Positions 1,815 through 16,161 of a stretch of 25,389 bases of DNA are shown one piece after another. The notes beneath the pieces are model-generated. The model did not search any database and was not told where the DNA came from. It saw only the letters and a list, made by a program, of their open reading frames with translations. The position numbers were made by a program, and so were the translations under genes. The stretch lies in the IMG/VR virus record IMGVR_UViG_3300042905_003842, positions 1-25,389 of that record; one strand, given 5' to 3'. This DNA is from a virus. Within the stretch, counting starts at the first letter, position 1. The number at the start of each line of letters is the position of its first letter.

Positions 1815-2176
1815 GGCACCCTCCCGAAGCACGCGCACCAGTAGGGCCCGTTCCCGGCATCGCAGACACCGACGCCGATGACGTTCGACGAGCCGCTCAT
1901 GATGTTCCACCGATGCCCAGGCGACCACAGCCAAGCAGACATGACTGCCTCTTCGGTCTTCTGGTTCCACGCGATGTTTTCCGCGGCCCTCGAGAACCCG
2001 AGCTTCATGATGTCACGCATCGTTGAATGCGTCATACGGTTCCGCCGTGCCATCGTGGTTGCCCAAGTCTGCGCGTAGTACATGAGGCTGGTGTCGGCTG
2101 ACAGCGGCTTCAGCGTCCACCACGATTTCGCCCTGGCGTCGTTGTGCAGCTTGATCAGCTTCTGCAGGTCATACAT
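1811..2176 (-). CDS. CAP/SCP superfamily protein
   Basis: This 121-residue protein has CAP (SCP/PR-1) signatures: the N-terminal helix with HNDAR (11-15), MTHS at 48-51, GF followed by AENIAW (61-70), a helix ending in SPGHR (85-89), and the closing strands GVGV and YWCACFG. Candidate members of the CAP His/Glu tetrad are H50, E66, E75 or E76, and H88. CAP domains are secreted proteins of varied function, including lipid binding and, in some bacterial members, proteolysis. No signal peptide is visible, so export would have to be by lysis or in the virion. The gene overlaps the HNH gene upstream by 8 bases and is ATGA-coupled to the 29-residue membrane peptide downstream. Confidence 0.85.
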   Translation of the reverse strand: MYDLQKLIKLHNDARAKSWWTLKPLSADTSLMYYAQTWATTMARRNRMTHSTMRDIMKLGFSRAAENIAWNQKTEEAVMSAWLWSPGHRWNIMSGSSNVIGVGVCDAGNGPYWCACFGRVP

Positions 2177-2507
2177 CGCCCTGCTCCCGTACCTCGCTCG
2201 TGAGGATTACCTGGGCCAAGCGGCGAACGTCAGGTCGCCACTTACGGTCGTCGCAGGCATGCCCGAGCCACCAGTGGCAGTCGCGAGGCGGCCCGCACAG
2301 AGAAATCAAATTTAGGGGATCTAGCTGGAGTTCCTCGCGGCCAATTCGGCGAGCGTGCCCTACCGGAATTACGTGATGGACCTCAAGGTTGTCTCTGGCA
2401 CCGCAGGCGGCGCACGTCGGGTACCGCTCAAGGTGCCGGCGACGTACGGCGGGCCAGCGAGAATCGCGGCCAAATGAGTCAAACGATTTCTTGAGCCAGC
2501 CGAACAT
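2169..2507 (-). CDS. HNH endonuclease
   Basis: This 112-residue protein has CAAC at 32-35, EVHHVIPV at 42-49 (catalytic HH), Asn 66 in LDPLNLISLC and a distal C71/C77-H78 zinc pair, the standard ßßα-metal HNH layout. It is the third HNH gene in the first 2.5 kb. It overlaps the downstream CAP gene by 8 bases. No strong ribosome binding site precedes ATG 2507, and a 161-base non-coding stretch lies upstream. The domain is certain; whether it is a homing nuclease or has a phage function is not. Confidence 0.85.
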   Translation of the reverse strand: MFGWLKKSFDSFGRDSRWPAVRRRHLERYPTCAACGARDNLEVHHVIPVGHARRIGREELQLDPLNLISLCGPPRDCHWWLGHACDDRKWRPDVRRLAQVILTSEVREQGDV

Positions 2508-2668: not shown

Positions 2669-3496
2669 CTAAGCCGCCGTTACTTTGGCTTCCGCTTCGA
2701 TGATTGCCCGCCCAATGAATTCGACGACTTGCGGGACGACCGCGTTTCCAAGTCCCCTAAGTCTGTCCACCCGGCGGGGAACCCCATGAGCCACTCTACC
2801 CACGTCGGGTTCAGCGCTCCACCAGCCGCTGCATTGAGCGGCAGGCTGTTTCTTTTGTATTGGCTGGGGCCGCCGTTGTTCGATGCGTCCTGAACTGTCG
2901 GCGTGGGCCAAGTTTTGATCGCCTCCCGAAGATTGACGCCACCACTGCGGCGATTCCGTTTCGTTTGCCGAGATTCCGCCCCGCGCTGTGCGTCCCAGCG
3001 ATTGGGAGTAGGCAACAATCCAGATTCTTTCCCTGCGGTGCGGGGCACCAACGGCACAAGCCGGTACGCAGTGCCATTCCGCATCAAACCCGATGTCGGC
3101 CAAGTCTGCGAGTACGGTTCCGAGTCCTCTAGAAGTGAGCGCTCTGACGTTCTCCACAATGACCCATCGCGGTCGCACTTGGCGAATGATCCTTGCAAAC
3201 TCGTACCAAAGACCAGACCGCTCTCCTGCGAGTCCGGCACCTTTTCCTGCAAGGCTGATGTCTTGGCATGGGAATCCACCGCAGATGACATCAACGGACC
3301 AGTCCCTGTCGGCGGTGGGGAAAGTCCGAACGTCATCGTGTCGCGGGACGTTAGGCCAATGCTTGGCAAGGACACGGCTGGCGTAGTCATCTATTTCGAC
3401 TTGCCACTTGCAGACCATTCCGGCCATTTCTAGGCCAAGGTCAAAGCCGCCGATGCCGGCGAACAACGACCCAAAGGTCAATGGCTTCCTTTCCAT
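2669..3496 (-). CDS. DNA (cytosine-5) methyltransferase
   Basis: This 275-residue protein is a Dcm-type C5 methyltransferase that transfers a methyl group from SAM to cytosine in DNA. Motif I is FGSLFAGIGGFDLGLE (8-23). Motif IV is GGFPCQDIS with catalytic Cys 77. Motif VI is ENV (115-117), motif VIII is RRERIWIVA (154-162) and motif X is RGLGNAVVPQ (247-256). The target-recognition region between VIII and X is short and polar. The likely role is protection of phage DNA from host restriction, since no partner restriction enzyme is visible. ATG 3496 has no clear ribosome binding site; a TTG at 3481, preceded by AAGGA, is an alternative. A second long frame lies inside the gene. Confidence 0.95.
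   Translation of the reverse strand: MERKPLTFGSLFAGIGGFDLGLEMAGMVCKWQVEIDDYASRVLAKHWPNVPRHDDVRTFPTADRDWSVDVICGGFPCQDISLAGKGAGLAGERSGLWYEFARIIRQVRPRWVIVENVRALTSRGLGTVLADLADIGFDAEWHCVPACAVGAPHRRERIWIVAYSQSLGRTARGGISANETESPQWWRQSSGGDQNLAHADSSGRIEQRRPQPIQKKQPAAQCSGWWSAEPDVGRVAHGVPRRVDRLRGLGNAVVPQVVEFIGRAIIEAEAKVTAA
2680..3390 (-). CDS. protein encoded in second frame inside the C5 methyltransferase gene
   Basis: This 236-codon ORF lies wholly inside the methyltransferase gene, on the same strand but in another frame. It does not read like a random shadow. It has SLWRTSERSLLED, EPYSQTWPTSGLMRNGTAY, LVPRTAGKESGLLPTP, TWPTPTVQDA and GGALNPTWVEWLMGFPAGW in order. I recall near-identical motif strings in many phage and metagenomic proteins annotated as hypothetical or as methyltransferase fragments. 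An internal ATG at 3291 (MSSAVDSHAK) is a plausible true start. No ribosome binding site is convincing. It may be a real overlapping gene, a frameshift extension, or an echo of strong nucleotide conservation. Confidence 0.45.
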   Translation of the reverse strand: MTTPAVSLPSIGLTSRDTMTFGLSPPPTGTGPLMSSAVDSHAKTSALQEKVPDSQESGLVFGTSLQGSFAKCDRDGSLWRTSERSLLEDSEPYSQTWPTSGLMRNGTAYRLVPLVPRTAGKESGLLPTPNRWDAQRGAESRQTKRNRRSGGVNLREAIKTWPTPTVQDASNNGGPSQYKRNSLPLNAAAGGALNPTWVEWLMGFPAGWTDLGDLETRSSRKSSNSLGGQSSKRKPK

Positions 3497-3613: not shown

Positions 3614-3931
3614 TCACAGCATCGGTGGATCGGGCGGCAGCAGCGCAACGGCCTCCGACCACGGCAGAACTTCGACGGCCTGCCCTAAGACGGCCTTGTC
3701 TGCCGCCTCCCACATGGCATGAAGCAGGCCGCCCGGTTCGATCTCCGTGAGAACGTCGGCCGATAGCATGAGCCGCCCGTCCGTTAGAACACGCGGCACA
3801 GGGCGGCATTTGTTGCTGCCGTGGATGCCGTGCAGTTCGGCCAGTCTGCCCGCCAACTGCGGCGTGAAGACGAGGGCGTACTGCCTCGCCTCGTCGTAGC
3901 TGATCGGGAGCGTGAGGTCGCCGAGCGTCAT
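3614..3931 (-). CDS. hypothetical protein coupled to the fibre-like gene
   Basis: This 105-residue acidic, Leu/Ala-rich protein starts MTLGDLTLPISYDEARQ and ends in a Pro-rich tail (LPPDPPML). It is probably cytoplasmic, with no signal peptide or membrane span. It starts in an ATGA overlap with the stop of the large repeat-containing structural gene, so the two are translated together. It could be an assembly chaperone or accessory of that protein. I do not recognise the family. Confidence 0.6.
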   Translation of the reverse strand: MTLGDLTLPISYDEARQYALVFTPQLAGRLAELHGIHGSNKCRPVPRVLTDGRLMLSADVLTEIEPGGLLHAMWEAADKAVLGQAVEVLPWSEAVALLPPDPPML

Positions 3932-5505
3932 GGGATGGCGGCTCCGATTGCGGTGTAGAGCGTGGAGACGCGGGAATCCAAAAGCGAAAGCGTCAAGGAT
4001 TCGCCGATGCTATAGAAGGCAAGCCGGCCAGACGTATGGTTAAAGAAAGTAGTAACGTTTCTGGCAAAAATAAGCATATTGTTTTCGTCGCCGCTCATAG
4101 AAGCCGCAGTAACAGTTGCATCCGCGCCCGCTGCCCTTCTGACGTAAGAGGCTGATCCCGACCGCGTAACACCAATAAGCCCGGCGACGTTATTCGCTGT
4201 TCCAGATGTTGATGTAGTCTCGTTTGACAGCCGGGTGCTGATGCTGGTTTCAGTGCCCGAAATGCCGATGATCTGTGATCTTGATGCTGTTTCTCCAGGA
4301 AGCGACGCACTTCCTAAATACGCATGCGCTCCAGAAGTTTGGGCCGTAGACACCCAGACGGCGGCGTGCCGATTGTCTTGCAATGCCGTACCGAAGGCAT
4401 AGTTGCTGTTTAGGTACTTCGTCGATCCGTTACCCACCAGCCCCGTCTTCCGGTTGTAGTCGCCGGAGACAAATGGCCCGTTATTCGTCGGTGCCGAGCC
4501 GACGAGCGGCGTCAGCGCACCGGACAGCGTGCGAGCGCCCATGAGGATGCAGGAGGCTTTGATGGCTGTCCATGTACCGTCCGACTTGCAGCCGGTGATG
4601 AACGTATTAATGGCGTCCCGAACGCCGGTTTCTAGTAGCTGCCCGTCCGCAGTTTCGACTGCGTTGATGTAAGCGTTCACGTCCGCGTCCGCGTAGTTCG
4701 GGGCGAGGGCGGCTCCGATTGCGGTGTAGAGCGCGGAGACGCGGGTGTCTAGGAGCGCCAGGTCTAGCGATTCGCCGATTGAATAAAAACCAAGCCGGCT
4801 AGCAGAAAACGCCGTGGCAGAGCCGCTGTTGTTGTCGGCATACACAAATACATTTCCGTTAAACGGAGTTTCGGACGCGGTCGTGTACGCAGTGTCCGAA
4901 CCATTAATGCGAATTAGCGTTGCATTTGACGCTGATCGGCGATACGCAAACAGTGTGCCGCTGGACGGAACAACGAGCGGGCTAGGCGTGGATATTGAGC
5001 TATTTCTAATACGCACGGAGGTGGTGGCTGGCGATGCAGTGATCGCACAACGAGTCGCGCCAGTGAGATTGAATCCAGCACCAATCGGAACATTGTTTGT
5101 CGCAGTTGCCGTGGAAACCCACACAGCATGAGAAACGCTATTTTGCGGGTCTGCGTTGTTGTTGCGACCGCTGTTCAAGTATTTCGTCGATCCGTCGCCG
5201 ACGAGCCCCGTTTTCCTGTTATAGTCGCCGCTAACGAAGTTTACGTTTGTGGGTGCCGTGCCGACCAACGGCGTAAGAGCGCCGGACAGCGTGCGGGCAC
5301 CCATGAGGATGCAGGAGGCTTTGATGGCAGTCCAGATGCCGTCGGTCTTGCATCCAGCGACAAAGTCGTTGATTGCCTTGGCGACGGCTGGCTCTAGGTT
5401 AGAGCCGTCGGCCGTGCGGACGGCGGCGAGGTAGGCCCGAGCGTCGGCGTCTGGTGCGACGTAGCCCGTAGCTCTAGGGCGCAGGAGCCGGGGATTCATG
5501 GGCAT
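3928..5505 (-). CDS. probable tail/receptor-binding protein with two tandem domains
   Basis: This 525-residue protein consists of two copies of one domain of about 255 residues, covering roughly residues 20-270 and 275-525. Each copy begins with A(D/N)V/DARAY-type helices, carries IKASCILMGARTLSGALTPL and FVSGDYNRKTGLVG, and ends FYSIGESL followed by LLD-R-VS-LYTAIGAA. The Ser/Thr/Asn-rich, beta-rich composition resembles LamG/concanavalin-type jelly-roll modules of phage fibres; that fold is inferred. Both copies carry one conserved Cys in GCK and one in ASCI. It starts at ATG 5505 with only a weak GAG upstream. The gene downstream is ATGA-coupled. Confidence 0.65.
   Translation of the reverse strand: MPMNPRLLRPRATGYVAPDADARAYLAAVRTADGSNLEPAVAKAINDFVAGCKTDGIWTAIKASCILMGARTLSGALTPLVGTAPTNVNFVSGDYNRKTGLVGDGSTKYLNSGRNNNADPQNSVSHAVWVSTATATNNVPIGAGFNLTGATRCAITASPATTSVRIRNSSISTPSPLVVPSSGTLFAYRRSASNATLIRINGSDTAYTTASETPFNGNVFVYADNNSGSATAFSASRLGFYSIGESLDLALLDTRVSALYTAIGAALAPNYADADVNAYINAVETADGQLLETGVRDAINTFITGCKSDGTWTAIKASCILMGARTLSGALTPLVGSAPTNNGPFVSGDYNRKTGLVGNGSTKYLNSNYAFGTALQDNRHAAVWVSTAQTSGAHAYLGSASLPGETASRSQIIGISGTETSISTRLSNETTSTSGTANNVAGLIGVTRSGSASYVRRAAGADATVTAASMSGDENNMLIFARNVTTFFNHTSGRLAFYSIGESLTLSLLDSRVSTLYTAIGAAIP
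3932..5460. repeat. two-copy tandem duplication inside the fibre-like gene
   Basis: Two blocks of DNA recur with a period of about 762-771 bases. One begins GCTCCGATTGCGGTGTAGAG at 3941 and again at 4712. The other begins ATGAGGATGCAGGAGGCTTT at 4541 and again at 5303. In the conserved parts identity is close to complete over 25-40 bases, while the middle of each copy is diverged. The difference in period reflects small in-frame indels. It is an intragenic domain duplication. Confidence 0.85.
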
Positions 5506-13715: not shown

Positions 13716-14569
13716 GCAGACTCCTCCTTGAGTTTGAGTTTCTGTGCAAGCGCGGCGACCTCCTTTGGTCGCCGGTACGGGGCTGGCTGGTACTGGTCCT
13801 TCCAAGCCACAGGCTTCGGCCGTTCGTCTGGTCGATTGCCTGCCTGACGATGCGTGCCACCCCGGTCTTGGCACTTACTTAGCCAGACCGTAGTGAGCCA
13901 TCTACGCCAGTTCGATTTCCGTGCCTTCTTCGGGTTCGCCTTCAGCCACTGAGTGGCCTTAGCGAGTTCGACGGGAAGGTCAGCCGCCGGGTAAGCCTGT
14001 GACCATTCCGCACGGTCAGCGTCGGTGATGCCCTCCCAACCGTTTTCCGCAGACCACCGAAGCGGATCGGCCGGCTTCGAGCCAGACCGCGAAGCGGGCT
14101 TGCTCGGAGCACTCAAAGGATTAGAGGTAGAAGGAAGACAAGAAGAAGGATTAAAGGCGCAAGAAGCCGGGGGATTTCCCGGCTCCAGCGCCGGATTTCC
14201 CGGTTTTCCGTTTGGCTCTGGGAAAACGATGATTTCCGCCGATTCATCGGGTGGCGGCAGCCCTTCGTCACGCTCGTCGGGGTGACACCGCTGATGCTCC
14301 CCGAAAGTCGGGATCTCGAGCACCTTCACGTCGCCCGATTCGTAGGCTCGGACGAAGCCCCTATCGGCCAGCTGCTTTAGCAGGCCGAGTATGTCGCAGT
14401 TGTCGTACGGAAACAGTTCCGCTTTGATACGCAGCGGGCGGAACTCCATTCGCCCCTGGCTGTCGGCCAGCGTCCAGAGCCCGACGAAAAGCAGGCGTGC
14501 CATCGGATCGCACTCTGCCAAATATTCGTTCTTGAAGAACGACGGTTTAATGCTGCGGGTTCGGGCCAT
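13712..14569 (-). CDS. phage replication initiation protein (winged helix)
   Basis: This 285-residue protein begins ARTRSIKPSFFKNEYLAECD, then ARLLFVGLWTLADSQGRMEF and a winged-helix-like stretch with ELFPYDNCDILGLLKQLADR, a pattern familiar from phage replication proteins (lambda O / DnaD-like organisers). A Ser/Pro-rich linker (about 110-165) leads to a C-terminal domain with LKANPKKARKSNWRRWLTTV followed by WLSKCQDRG, often seen in this family. It probably binds the origin and recruits the helicase loader. GGAGG lies six bases before ATG 14569. It overlaps the PAPS-reductase-like gene by 23 bases. I see no iteron array inside the gene. Confidence 0.8.
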   Translation of the reverse strand: MARTRSIKPSFFKNEYLAECDPMARLLFVGLWTLADSQGRMEFRPLRIKAELFPYDNCDILGLLKQLADRGFVRAYESGDVKVLEIPTFGEHQRCHPDERDEGLPPPDESAEIIVFPEPNGKPGNPALEPGNPPASCAFNPSSCLPSTSNPLSAPSKPASRSGSKPADPLRWSAENGWEGITDADRAEWSQAYPAADLPVELAKATQWLKANPKKARKSNWRRWLTTVWLSKCQDRGGTHRQAGNRPDERPKPVAWKDQYQPAPYRRPKEVAALAQKLKLKEESA

Positions 14570-15782
14570 CCTTGGCCTCCGGTTCGTAGATTTTCCATTC
14601 CTTCCTGCGGCGCTTCATCAAGTCCATATACCTCTGGTAAGCGGCTGTTTTGGTCGGACTGAATCCGAGCCACCGGCACCAGTAGTCATTCCGCAAAATC
14701 GACTTGGCAATCTTGCGCCAGCTGGGAGCCTTGCCGAGCGTTTCAAGTTTCTTGTCTGCCTCGTTCGGTATCTCGTCTGGGTAGCCCCTTGCCTTCCACC
14801 ACTTCAGGTACACGGCAATCTTGTTTTTGTAGTGCTCGCCCGTTCGCGGCGGCATGGATCCGAGTAGGAACTGAACGTAAGACTTCCATGTATGCCCTTT
14901 TGGGCAAGAGATGTCTCCCTTGCCCAAGACGTTGCCGCGTTCATTCCCGTACAGCGCCCCGGTGTTAGCGCCAGCCACTCGCTCTACAAGCTTCCCCCAC
15001 ATCTCGGGCTCGACAACTTGATACAGCCACAGGCTCTGCCTCTGCGTGTCACCAAAGGGCTCGCAGATACGCATCTGGTGAATGGTCATTCCCGCCTGGT
15101 GCATGCGGTCATACAGCGGGTTGTATGTAGTCCGCGACTTTGCGGCGTACGTCCAGATGTCTTCCGTCTGCCAGTCGTAAATCGGGTAGACGTTCCAGCA
15201 GTCGTCAACCACGTTTGTGGTGTACGGCTTGCCATCCAGCATCGGCTTGTCTCTGGCAACAGTCCGGAAACGGTTCAAGCTTTCCTGCGTTCGGATTCCA
15301 ACAAAACAAGCCGTCCGCTTTCCGCGCCCGTACCACTGGGCGAACAGCGGAACAAACTCCTCAAACATCATGTTGGGGACATAGAAATCAAAGAAATCAC
15401 CCCGCTTGATTGAGATGTCTTCCTTGTCGCGAACCCACGTCTTGTTTTCGTCCCACGCGATCCATTCCGGCTCATGCTGGGAACAGCCATTCCAAGTCGT
15501 CATTGGTATTGCAACCCAATACGGCTCGATCCACTTGGCGTACTCGTCAAACATCTTGCGGGCATGGCGGATTGTCATCGTGAACTGACATTCCCAGTCG
15601 ATGAAAAGCACACCGATTGTCTGATCTCTTTTTTTTGCCTCCTCCATGACAAGGTGCATCATCGCCGTAGAGTCTTTGCCCGCACTAAAAGAGCAGTAGA
15701 CGCGTTCGCACGAGTCGAACGCCCACGCGATACGCTCCTTCGCTGCGTCCAACACGTTCTTTTCCAACATGCGTTTAGGCAT
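14547..15782 (-). CDS. ibrA: PAPS-reductase/DUF3440-like PP-loop enzyme (IbrA-like)
   Basis: This 410-residue protein is of the adenine-nucleotide alpha-hydrolase family. The PP-loop is CSFSAGKDSTAMMHLV (30-45), with DWECQF at 62-67 and CFVGIRTQESLNRFR (159-173). WNVYPIYDWQTEDIW is a PAPS-reductase hallmark, and a long C-terminal DUF3440-like part with WKARGYPDEIP follows. PP-loop enzymes adenylate substrates and some, such as DndC, act in DNA phosphorothioation. IbrA is the bacterial/prophage homologue of similar length. Its start at 15782 has GGAG seven bases upstream and overlaps the GNAT gene by 8 bases. Its partners are the ParB-like gene, an unknown gene and a GNAT gene. The symbol is by similarity; chemistry is unproven. 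Confidence 0.85.
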   Translation of the reverse strand: MPKRMLEKNVLDAAKERIAWAFDSCERVYCSFSAGKDSTAMMHLVMEEAKKRDQTIGVLFIDWECQFTMTIRHARKMFDEYAKWIEPYWVAIPMTTWNGCSQHEPEWIAWDENKTWVRDKEDISIKRGDFFDFYVPNMMFEEFVPLFAQWYGRGKRTACFVGIRTQESLNRFRTVARDKPMLDGKPYTTNVVDDCWNVYPIYDWQTEDIWTYAAKSRTTYNPLYDRMHQAGMTIHQMRICEPFGDTQRQSLWLYQVVEPEMWGKLVERVAGANTGALYGNERGNVLGKGDISCPKGHTWKSYVQFLLGSMPPRTGEHYKNKIAVYLKWWKARGYPDEIPNEADKKLETLGKAPSWRKIAKSILRNDYWCRWLGFSPTKTAAYQRYMDLMKRRRKEWKIYEPEAKDGPNPQH

Positions 15783-16161
15783 CTGGCCGCTCCATCCACA
15801 CAAAGTTCTTAGAAGCTTTTGTTTTCTTGAACCCAGCTTTGGCAAACGCCGGTGCGCTGGCCTTGGTGCACACAGCACGCAGTCTGCCTCCGTGGCTGGC
15901 AACAGCATGCTTCAACAAAGTCGCGAACAACCCCTTCTTCCGGTGCGATTCAACAACAAAACAGTCGGACACAAGCCTCCCGCGGACTGACATCCACCCC
16001 ACAAGCCGCCGGCCATCAAACGCTGTAATCCAAAGCTTGTCGTCGTCGTCATACGGGTGAACCCCAACCTGTCTTGCAATGTTTCTGCTGCCAAATACTG
16101 GACCGAAATGCTTGTAAAAATCCTTGTCAGCCCTGCTCATGTCTCGAATACGAACGCTCAT
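15775..16161 (-). CDS. GNAT-fold acyltransferase of the ParB/PAPS-reductase cassette
   Basis: This 128-residue protein has GNAT elements: LWITAFDGRRLVGWMSVRGR, SDCFVVESHRKKGLFATLLK (motif A, with HRKKGLF in the acetyl-CoA loop) and VCTKASAPAFAKAGFKKTKA (the usual C-terminal GF motif). It lies between the PAPS-reductase-like gene and the unknown gene, overlapping them by 8 and 35 bases. Phage Mu Mom, a DNA adenine-modifying enzyme, has a GNAT-like fold, so a DNA-modifying role is conceivable. That is inference; no Mom-specific motif is claimed. Confidence 0.75.
   Translation of the reverse strand: MSVRIRDMSRADKDFYKHFGPVFGSRNIARQVGVHPYDDDDKLWITAFDGRRLVGWMSVRGRLVSDCFVVESHRKKGLFATLLKHAVASHGGRLRAVCTKASAPAFAKAGFKKTKASKNFVWMERPDA

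What the first reader, a model, noticed from the sequence alone, without database searches (positions are those of the whole stretch)
2680..3390. A second protein-like reading frame inside the C5 methyltransferase gene
The alternative frame is 236 codons long with distinct ordered motifs (SLWRTS, ETWP-like SQTWPTSG, RNGTAY, PTP repeats, ALNPTWVEWLMGFPAGW). I recall these from many phage and metagenomic proteins. The methyltransferase frame is also intact. A conserved overlapping gene would be notable, and it may cover the weakly conserved target-recognition region.
Basis: partly seen in the sequence, partly recalled or inferred. Interest (0 to 1): 0.75.

Follow-up and report, generated by a model that had tools for sequence, protein, structure and literature searches.

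The report
Methyltransferase half hidden inside its partner
A phage DNA-methylating enzyme is encoded as two proteins written in two reading frames of the same DNA: the annotated gene makes the catalytic half, and an unannotated gene inside it most likely makes the half that recognises DNA.

Summary
The 236-codon frame (2680-3390, minus strand) lies at +1 inside a C5 methyltransferase gene (alpha, 2669-3496), and it is a real gene (beta). In 129 distinct relatives beta has 7 stops against 403 expected after synonymous-codon shuffling; all other frames look normal. Overlap-aware dN/dS for beta is 0.33-0.71 across the overlap and about 1.1 on either side. Between motifs VIII and X alpha is nearly unconstrained (omega 1.06, then 0.77); only beta is clearly constrained there.

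Beta's LNPTWVEWLMGFPAGW is motif IX of C5 methyltransferases. Mycobacteriophage Rita gp76 carries I-VIII, the PTP repeats, this motif and X in one chain. Other phages (Alma, Juno112, Euratis) split the enzyme with overlaps of increasing length. Best explanation: beta is the DNA-recognition subunit (TRD plus IX) of a two-protein methyltransferase; alpha supplies I-VIII and X.

The published precedent is M.EcoHK31I, whose small subunit carries motif IX. It is therefore a known kind, but very widespread, absent from Pfam and NCBIfam, and usually unannotated in the records I opened. Beta's start codon, the complex itself and direct homology to M.EcoHK31I were not established.

The parts
2669..3496 (-). 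alpha: C5-cytosine methyltransferase catalytic subunit, 275 aa, motifs I-VIII and X; no motif IX in its own frame
   Evidence: PF00145 residues 7-174, E 1.4e-47; phrog_363 E 1.6e-90; AlphaFold2 model confident at about 1-165 and 240-275, pLDDT below 50 at 187-239
2680..3390 (-). beta: overlapping ORF in the +1 frame, 236 aa from the first ATG (true start not determined)
   Evidence: phrog_1008 E 2.8e-31; stop depletion, synonymous constraint, overlap-aware dN/dS
3238..3294 (-). candidate beta start codons: TTG 3294, ATG 3291, GTG 3240 (AGGA a few bases upstream); ATG 3390 is the mechanical ORF start
   Evidence: TTG/ATG at alpha codons 68/69 in excess across relatives (59 vs 34, 50 vs 34); at codon 86 (GTG) no excess, but upstream Shine-Dalgarno-like 7 vs 1.6 expected. 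Stops thin out from about codon 63 and are absent from about codon 83. Not settled.
3001..3183 (-). beta N-terminal conserved module (SFAKCDRDGSLWRTSERSL...SQTWPTSGLMRNGTAYRL...GLLPTP), opposite alpha motifs VI-VIII
   Evidence: column conservation; omega_beta 0.61 and 0.54 for alpha 103-135 and 136-165
2887..2913 (-). beta TWPTPTVQD, one of the PTP repeats; proposed part of the target-recognition region
   Evidence: WPTP conserved in relatives; the same repeats lie between VIII and IX in single-chain Rita gp76
2764..2814 (-). beta motif IX, LNPTWVEWLMGFPAGWT
   Evidence: about 95% conserved; synonymous agreement z about 40; omega_beta 0.33; aligns in register with the motif IX segment of single-chain enzymes, P 0.0095, and with Rita gp76, E 4.9e-10 for the beta profile
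2702..2764 (-). alpha motif X (RLRGLGNAVVPQVVEFIGRAI); begins where beta motif IX ends
   Evidence: conservation; omega_alpha 0.24, omega_beta 1.06
3254..3280 (-). alpha motif IV, GGFPCQDIS, with the catalytic Cys
   Evidence: CGGFPCQDIS nearly invariant; established knowledge of C5 methyltransferases

Best explanation
The gene encodes both subunits of a heterodimeric C5-cytosine DNA methyltransferase. Alpha (frame 0) is the catalytic large domain: SAM binding, the PCQ active site, motif VIII, and the motif X helix at its C-terminus. Beta (+1 frame, started inside the alpha gene) supplies the small domain: an N-terminal module, the PTP-repeat region acting as target-recognition region, and motif IX, which holds that domain on the catalytic core. 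Alpha alone should have no working DNA-recognition domain; the pair together should methylate a specific site, most likely protecting phage DNA from host restriction. Shown here: beta is a selected gene; it carries the segments that fill the VIII-X gap in a single-chain relative. Inferred: that the two proteins bind each other, that beta sets specificity, and the protective role.
For: Beta is a gene: 7 stops vs 403 expected; synonymous constraint begins near alpha codon 63, peaks at z about 40 over beta motif IX and vanishes after beta ends; omega_beta 0.33-0.71 inside, about 1.1 outside. A second, distant family (Salmonella phage epsilon15, 71 sequences) shows the same: 3 stops vs 293; omega_beta 0.22 and omega_alpha 1.06 in the variable region. 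Beta is the methyltransferase small domain: single-chain Rita gp76 matches the alpha profile at 1-164 (E 1.6e-46) and the beta profile at 237-352 (E 4.9e-10), with X following. Euratis beta matches phrog_116, a methyltransferase profile, at 392-495, just after the part matched by window alpha, 203-374. Euratis gp33/gp34, Alma gp83/gp82 and Paraburkholderia L187 have alpha ending after VIII and beta carrying IX and X. Ordinary single-chain enzymes with motif IX in frame have normal +1 stop counts. The alpha model is disordered where the small domain should be. Precedent: M.EcoHK31I small subunit holds motif IX (PMC3404938).
Against: No peptide, ribosome-profiling or activity data. The beta model is poor (pLDDT 59.7, pTM 0.21), so the fold is not confirmed, and no complex was modelled. 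The start codon is not pinned. No direct sequence comparison with M.EcoHK31I was possible, and its TRD was predicted to lie in the large subunit, whereas selection here places it in beta. A few metagenomic relatives (L008, L184, L208, L247) have the alpha N-terminus in the beta frame, possibly through sequence errors or decay.
Confidence: 0.86

Rival explanations
1. Shadow ORF: the open and conserved alternative frame is a by-product of conserved methyltransferase residues, high G+C and codon bias, with no product.
For: G+C-rich genes often have long open alternative frames; in the window alone P(open) is only 0.023.
Against: Synonymous shuffling keeps protein and codon usage yet predicts 403 stops against 7 seen; low-G+C relatives stay open (2 vs 111); wobble positions are constrained exactly over beta; omega_beta 0.33 over IX.
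Confidence: 0.01
2. Beta is a genuine overlapping gene with an unrelated role (for example a regulator or anti-restriction protein) rather than a methyltransferase subunit.
For: No Pfam or NCBIfam family, poor fold prediction, and an N-terminal module with no known counterpart.
Against: The PTP repeats and motif IX of beta occur in line with I-VIII and X in Rita gp76; alpha lacks a small domain; alpha is nearly neutral where its own TRD should be.
Confidence: 0.06
3. Programmed frameshifting fuses alpha I-VIII to beta TRD-IX in one chain, recreating the Rita-type enzyme, instead of independent initiation of beta.
For: Rita gp76 shows that the fused order exists in nature; the beta start codon is not fixed across relatives.
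Against: The beta frame is constrained well before the end of motif VIII (omega_beta 0.61 and 0.54 for alpha 103-165); a frameshift after VIII would never translate that part, and one before it would lose VI-VIII. Motif X stays in the alpha frame. Where annotators split the pair, beta was given its own start codon.
Confidence: 0.07

Closest known systems
M.EcoHK31I, two-subunit C5 methyltransferase (YGGCCR)
   Same: Two polypeptides; large subunit with motifs I-VIII and X, small subunit with motif IX (PMC3404938). From memory (Lee, Kam and Shaw 1995): the small subunit is read in an alternative frame inside the large subunit gene, as here.
   Different: A restriction-modification enzyme rather than a phage orphan. 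Its TRD was predicted in the large subunit; here selection places the region between VIII and IX in beta. Sequence relationship not tested.
M.AquI, two-subunit C5 methyltransferase
   Same: Alpha with I-VIII, second protein with distal TRD and IX (PMC3404938).
   Different: In M.AquI the second subunit also has motif X and, as far as I recall, the genes are not nested. Alma, Juno112, Euratis and Paraburkholderia L187 look more like this form; the window does not, because X is in alpha.
Single-chain phage C5 methyltransferase, Mycobacterium phage Rita gp76
   Same: Contains homologues of window alpha (I-VIII) and of the beta C-terminal half (PTP repeats, IX).
   Different: One frame, one protein; lacks the beta N-terminal module.
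PHROG 1008
   Same: Matches beta and the split second subunits; labelled DNA methyltransferase.
   Different: A label from clustering; it says nothing of nesting or of subunit function.

Membership tests
C5-cytosine DNA methyltransferase (PF00145), alpha | Motifs I, IV (PCQ), VI (ENV), VIII and X | tested here: met
   PF00145 E 1.4e-47; motifs conserved in 129 relatives; Foldseek best match M.HhaI, E 8.6e-18
C5-cytosine DNA methyltransferase (PF00145), alpha | Motif IX and TRD in the same chain | tested here: not met
   alpha 187-239 pLDDT below 50; alpha 166-223 omega 1.06; motif-IX-like sequence found in the +1 frame in 77 of 80 alpha-ascertained loci and in the alpha frame in none
M.EcoHK31I-type two-subunit C5 methyltransferase | Large subunit with I-VIII and X; small subunit with IX | tested here: met
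M.EcoHK31I-type two-subunit C5 methyltransferase | Small subunit nested in an alternative frame of the large one | tested here: met
   met for this locus: +1 frame, 2680-3390 within 2669-3496. That M.EcoHK31I is nested is from memory; the original paper is not held
M.EcoHK31I-type two-subunit C5 methyltransferase | Sequence homology to M.EcoHK31I alpha and beta | not tested
   its sequence was not at hand; E. coli hits are prophage copies, not identified as EcoHK31I
M.EcoHK31I-type two-subunit C5 methyltransferase | Both polypeptides needed for activity | not testable with these tools
   needs expression and a methylation assay
M.AquI-type split C5 methyltransferase | Second subunit carries both IX and X | tested here: not met
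   X is in alpha in the window; met instead by Euratis, Alma and L187
PHROG 1008 | Significant profile match | tested here: met
   E 2.8e-31 over beta residues 17-173

The most novel reading that the evidence does not exclude
Very many phage and prophage genes annotated as complete DNA cytosine methyltransferases are only the catalytic half. The DNA-recognition half, including the TRD, is encoded by an unannotated nested beta gene, and the stretch that annotation reads as the methyltransferase variable region evolves neutrally in that frame. The family also shows the whole series from one chain, through partly overlapping genes, to a fully nested gene.
Probability: 0.75. Interest if true: 0.68.

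Novelty: new member of a known kind. Interest (0 to 1): 0.55.

Why it matters
Fully nested same-strand gene pairs with good selection evidence are rare, and here two parts of one enzyme share the same DNA. It means that cloning or modelling the annotated gene alone would give an enzyme without its DNA-recognition domain, that specificity predictions read from the alpha variable region use a neutrally evolving sequence, and that annotation pipelines miss a conserved protein in many phages and prophages. The graded series of architectures makes the origin of a long gene overlap directly testable.

Tried and rejected
A first stop count defined the core by the alternative ORF itself and was circular for the observed value; it was redone with coordinates from the alpha alignment. 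Searches for beta in PDB by sequence gave nothing but chance matches. Pfam has no beta family. A direct profile match of the full beta alignment to five single-chain enzymes failed (probability near 0); only its C-terminal third aligned, weakly but at motif IX. The beta structure prediction was too poor to search with. RNA folding near the candidate start was unremarkable (z -1.4), so a structure-based nucleotide constraint there is not supported. Literature searches found no paper describing this overlap in phages; absence from this open-access library is weak evidence. PMC11855218 describes a different overlap, an out-of-frame HNH gene inserted in a mycobacteriophage methylase.

Full report
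WHAT IS THERE. The alternative frame is exactly as described: 2680-3390 on the minus strand, 236 codons, ATG start, with SLWRTS, SQTWPTSG, RNGTAY, two PTP stretches and ALNPTWVEWLMGFPAGW. It lies in the +1 frame of an intact 275-aa ORF (2669-3496) that matches Pfam PF00145 (E 1.4e-47). Below, alpha is the methyltransferase frame and beta the alternative frame. Beta has no Pfam or NCBIfam family but matches PHROG 1008 (E 2.8e-31), which is labelled 'DNA methyltransferase'. The window is a virus record with phage replication and metabolism genes.

IS IT A GENE. I collected relatives in two independent ways, with beta and with alpha as queries, plus phage and plasmid records. All 167 loci have both proteins, always with beta at +1. 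To control for conserved alpha residues and codon bias, I shuffled synonymous codons within each alpha gene. In 129 distinct sequences, alpha codons 105-246 have 7 stops in the +1 frame against 403 expected. The +2 and antisense frames give 995 vs 1012, 403 vs 460, 503 vs 424 and 684 vs 606. In the 76 sequences found through alpha alone it is 1 vs 236; in 20 low-G+C sequences, 2 vs 111. The N-terminal part of alpha (11-100) shows only mild depletion, 228 vs 308. Six ordinary single-chain C5 methyltransferases have normal +1 stop counts.

SELECTION. Agreement of synonymous codons among sequences rises above the shuffled null near alpha codon 63, is 13-23 standard deviations high over codons 100-153, about 40 over codons 226-243, and returns to background after beta ends. 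Overlap-aware dN/dS on 43 independent pairs gives omega_beta 1.14 (codons 6-60), 0.90 (66-102), 0.61 (103-135), 0.54 (136-165), 0.71 (166-223), 0.33 (224-246) and 1.06 (250-268). Omega_alpha for the same stretches is 0.25, 0.22, 0.50, 0.21, 1.06, 0.77 and 0.24. So between motifs VIII and X alpha is neutral or nearly so, and the selected product is beta. The estimator is a simple counting method without multiple-hit correction; the flanking stretches serve as internal controls. A distant family around Salmonella phage epsilon15 gives the same answer independently: 71 sequences, 3 stops vs 293 expected; in the variable region omega_beta 0.22 (0.16-0.30) and omega_alpha 1.06. In the epsilon15 record only alpha is annotated.

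WHAT BETA IS. The most conserved part of beta, LNPTWVEWLMGFPxGWTDL, has the pattern of C5 motif IX (compare RRLTPRECARLMGF in the single-chain controls), and the beta C-terminal profile aligns weakly but in register to that segment. In the window, beta motif IX (2814-2764) ends where alpha motif X (2764-2702) begins, the order found in single-chain enzymes. The strongest evidence is Mycobacterium phage Rita gp76, a single 389-aa protein: motifs I-VIII, several LLPTP repeats, RLAPAFSEWMMGWPAGWV, then GNGVVPQQ. The alpha profile matches its residues 1-164 (E 1.6e-46) and the beta profile its residues 237-352 (E 4.9e-10). Among relatives found with Rita gp76, 7 have this motif in the alpha frame and 51 in the +1 frame. 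In Alma (gp83/gp82), Juno112 (41/42), Euratis (33/34) and Paraburkholderia L187, alpha stops after motif VIII and the second frame carries IX and X, with overlaps from about 50 bases upward. The window type is the extreme: beta is fully nested and X is in alpha.

STRUCTURE. The alpha model is confident over about 1-165 and 240-275 and unfolded at 187-239; its best structural match is M.HhaI. Alpha thus has the catalytic domain and motif X helix but no small domain. The beta model has low confidence and is not used as evidence; a subunit that folds only on its partner would look like this, but so would a failed prediction.

MECHANISM. By the established architecture of C5 methyltransferases (PMC3404938), motifs I-VIII and X make the catalytic domain and TRD plus IX make the DNA-recognition domain. 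I infer that beta folds against alpha through motif IX, reads the target with the PTP-repeat region, and that the dimer methylates phage DNA. The beta N-terminal module is conserved here but absent from Rita gp76; it may be the docking surface. The start of beta is not fixed: TTG/ATG at alpha codons 68/69 (window 3294/3291) are in excess across relatives, and GTG 3240 has a Shine-Dalgarno-like AGGA upstream.

COMPARISON WITH WHAT IS KNOWN. [quoted passage not shown] from memory, its small subunit is also read in an alternative frame inside the large one. M.AquI is split after VIII with IX and X in the second subunit. The window works like M.EcoHK31I. Whether it is homologous to it could not be tested. 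One difference is that the TRD of M.EcoHK31I was predicted to be in the large subunit; in the two families tested here, selection places that region in beta, so that prediction deserves a second look.

SPREAD. Beta occurs in bacterial and prophage DNA of many phyla (150 of 160 further loci overlap alpha at +1 by the automatic check) and in isolated phages of Paenibacillus, Mycobacterium, Arthrobacter, Escherichia, Klebsiella, Salmonella and others. Annotation is inconsistent: some records list two 'DNA methylase' genes, Paenibacillus phage Shelly lists a 'g55 internal gene' of unknown function, and several others list alpha alone.

VERDICT. It is a known kind of enzyme arrangement in a large, mostly unrecognised phage family.

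Noticed in passing
L347 1171-2214 (Salmonella phage epsilon15): A well-studied phage has an unannotated nested beta gene of about 348 codons inside its 'DNA methyltransferase', with beta under stronger selection than alpha in the variable region.
   Followed up: yes
L343 996-2042, L342 1382-2307: A diverged methyltransferase family (GSCPCQGFSAAG, GYGNAIN) has its own nested second frame with LNPAHSRWLMGLPEAWD; the same layout in two distant families suggests one old origin or repeated evolution.
   Followed up: partly
L193 3652-5098: An actinomycete metagenomic locus where motif X and the RVDRLKGLGNAIVPQ stretch have moved into the beta frame, after an insert of about 150 residues.
   Followed up: no
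L338 4367-5128: An E. coli prophage copy whose alpha is marked as a pseudogene with an internal stop.
   Followed up: no
L337 2486-3037: A Nostoc plasmid alpha truncated after motif VIII whose +1 frame has the beta N-terminal half but no motif IX: probably decayed.
   Followed up: no
window 2169-2507, minus strand: A small HNH endonuclease gene just downstream of the methyltransferase (PF01844).
   Followed up: no
window 3928-5505, minus strand: A 525-aa protein made of two similar halves, both matching phrog_17104 of unknown function.
   Followed up: no
window 14547-15908, minus strand: A PAPS-reductase domain protein with DUF3440 on a phage contig.
   Followed up: no
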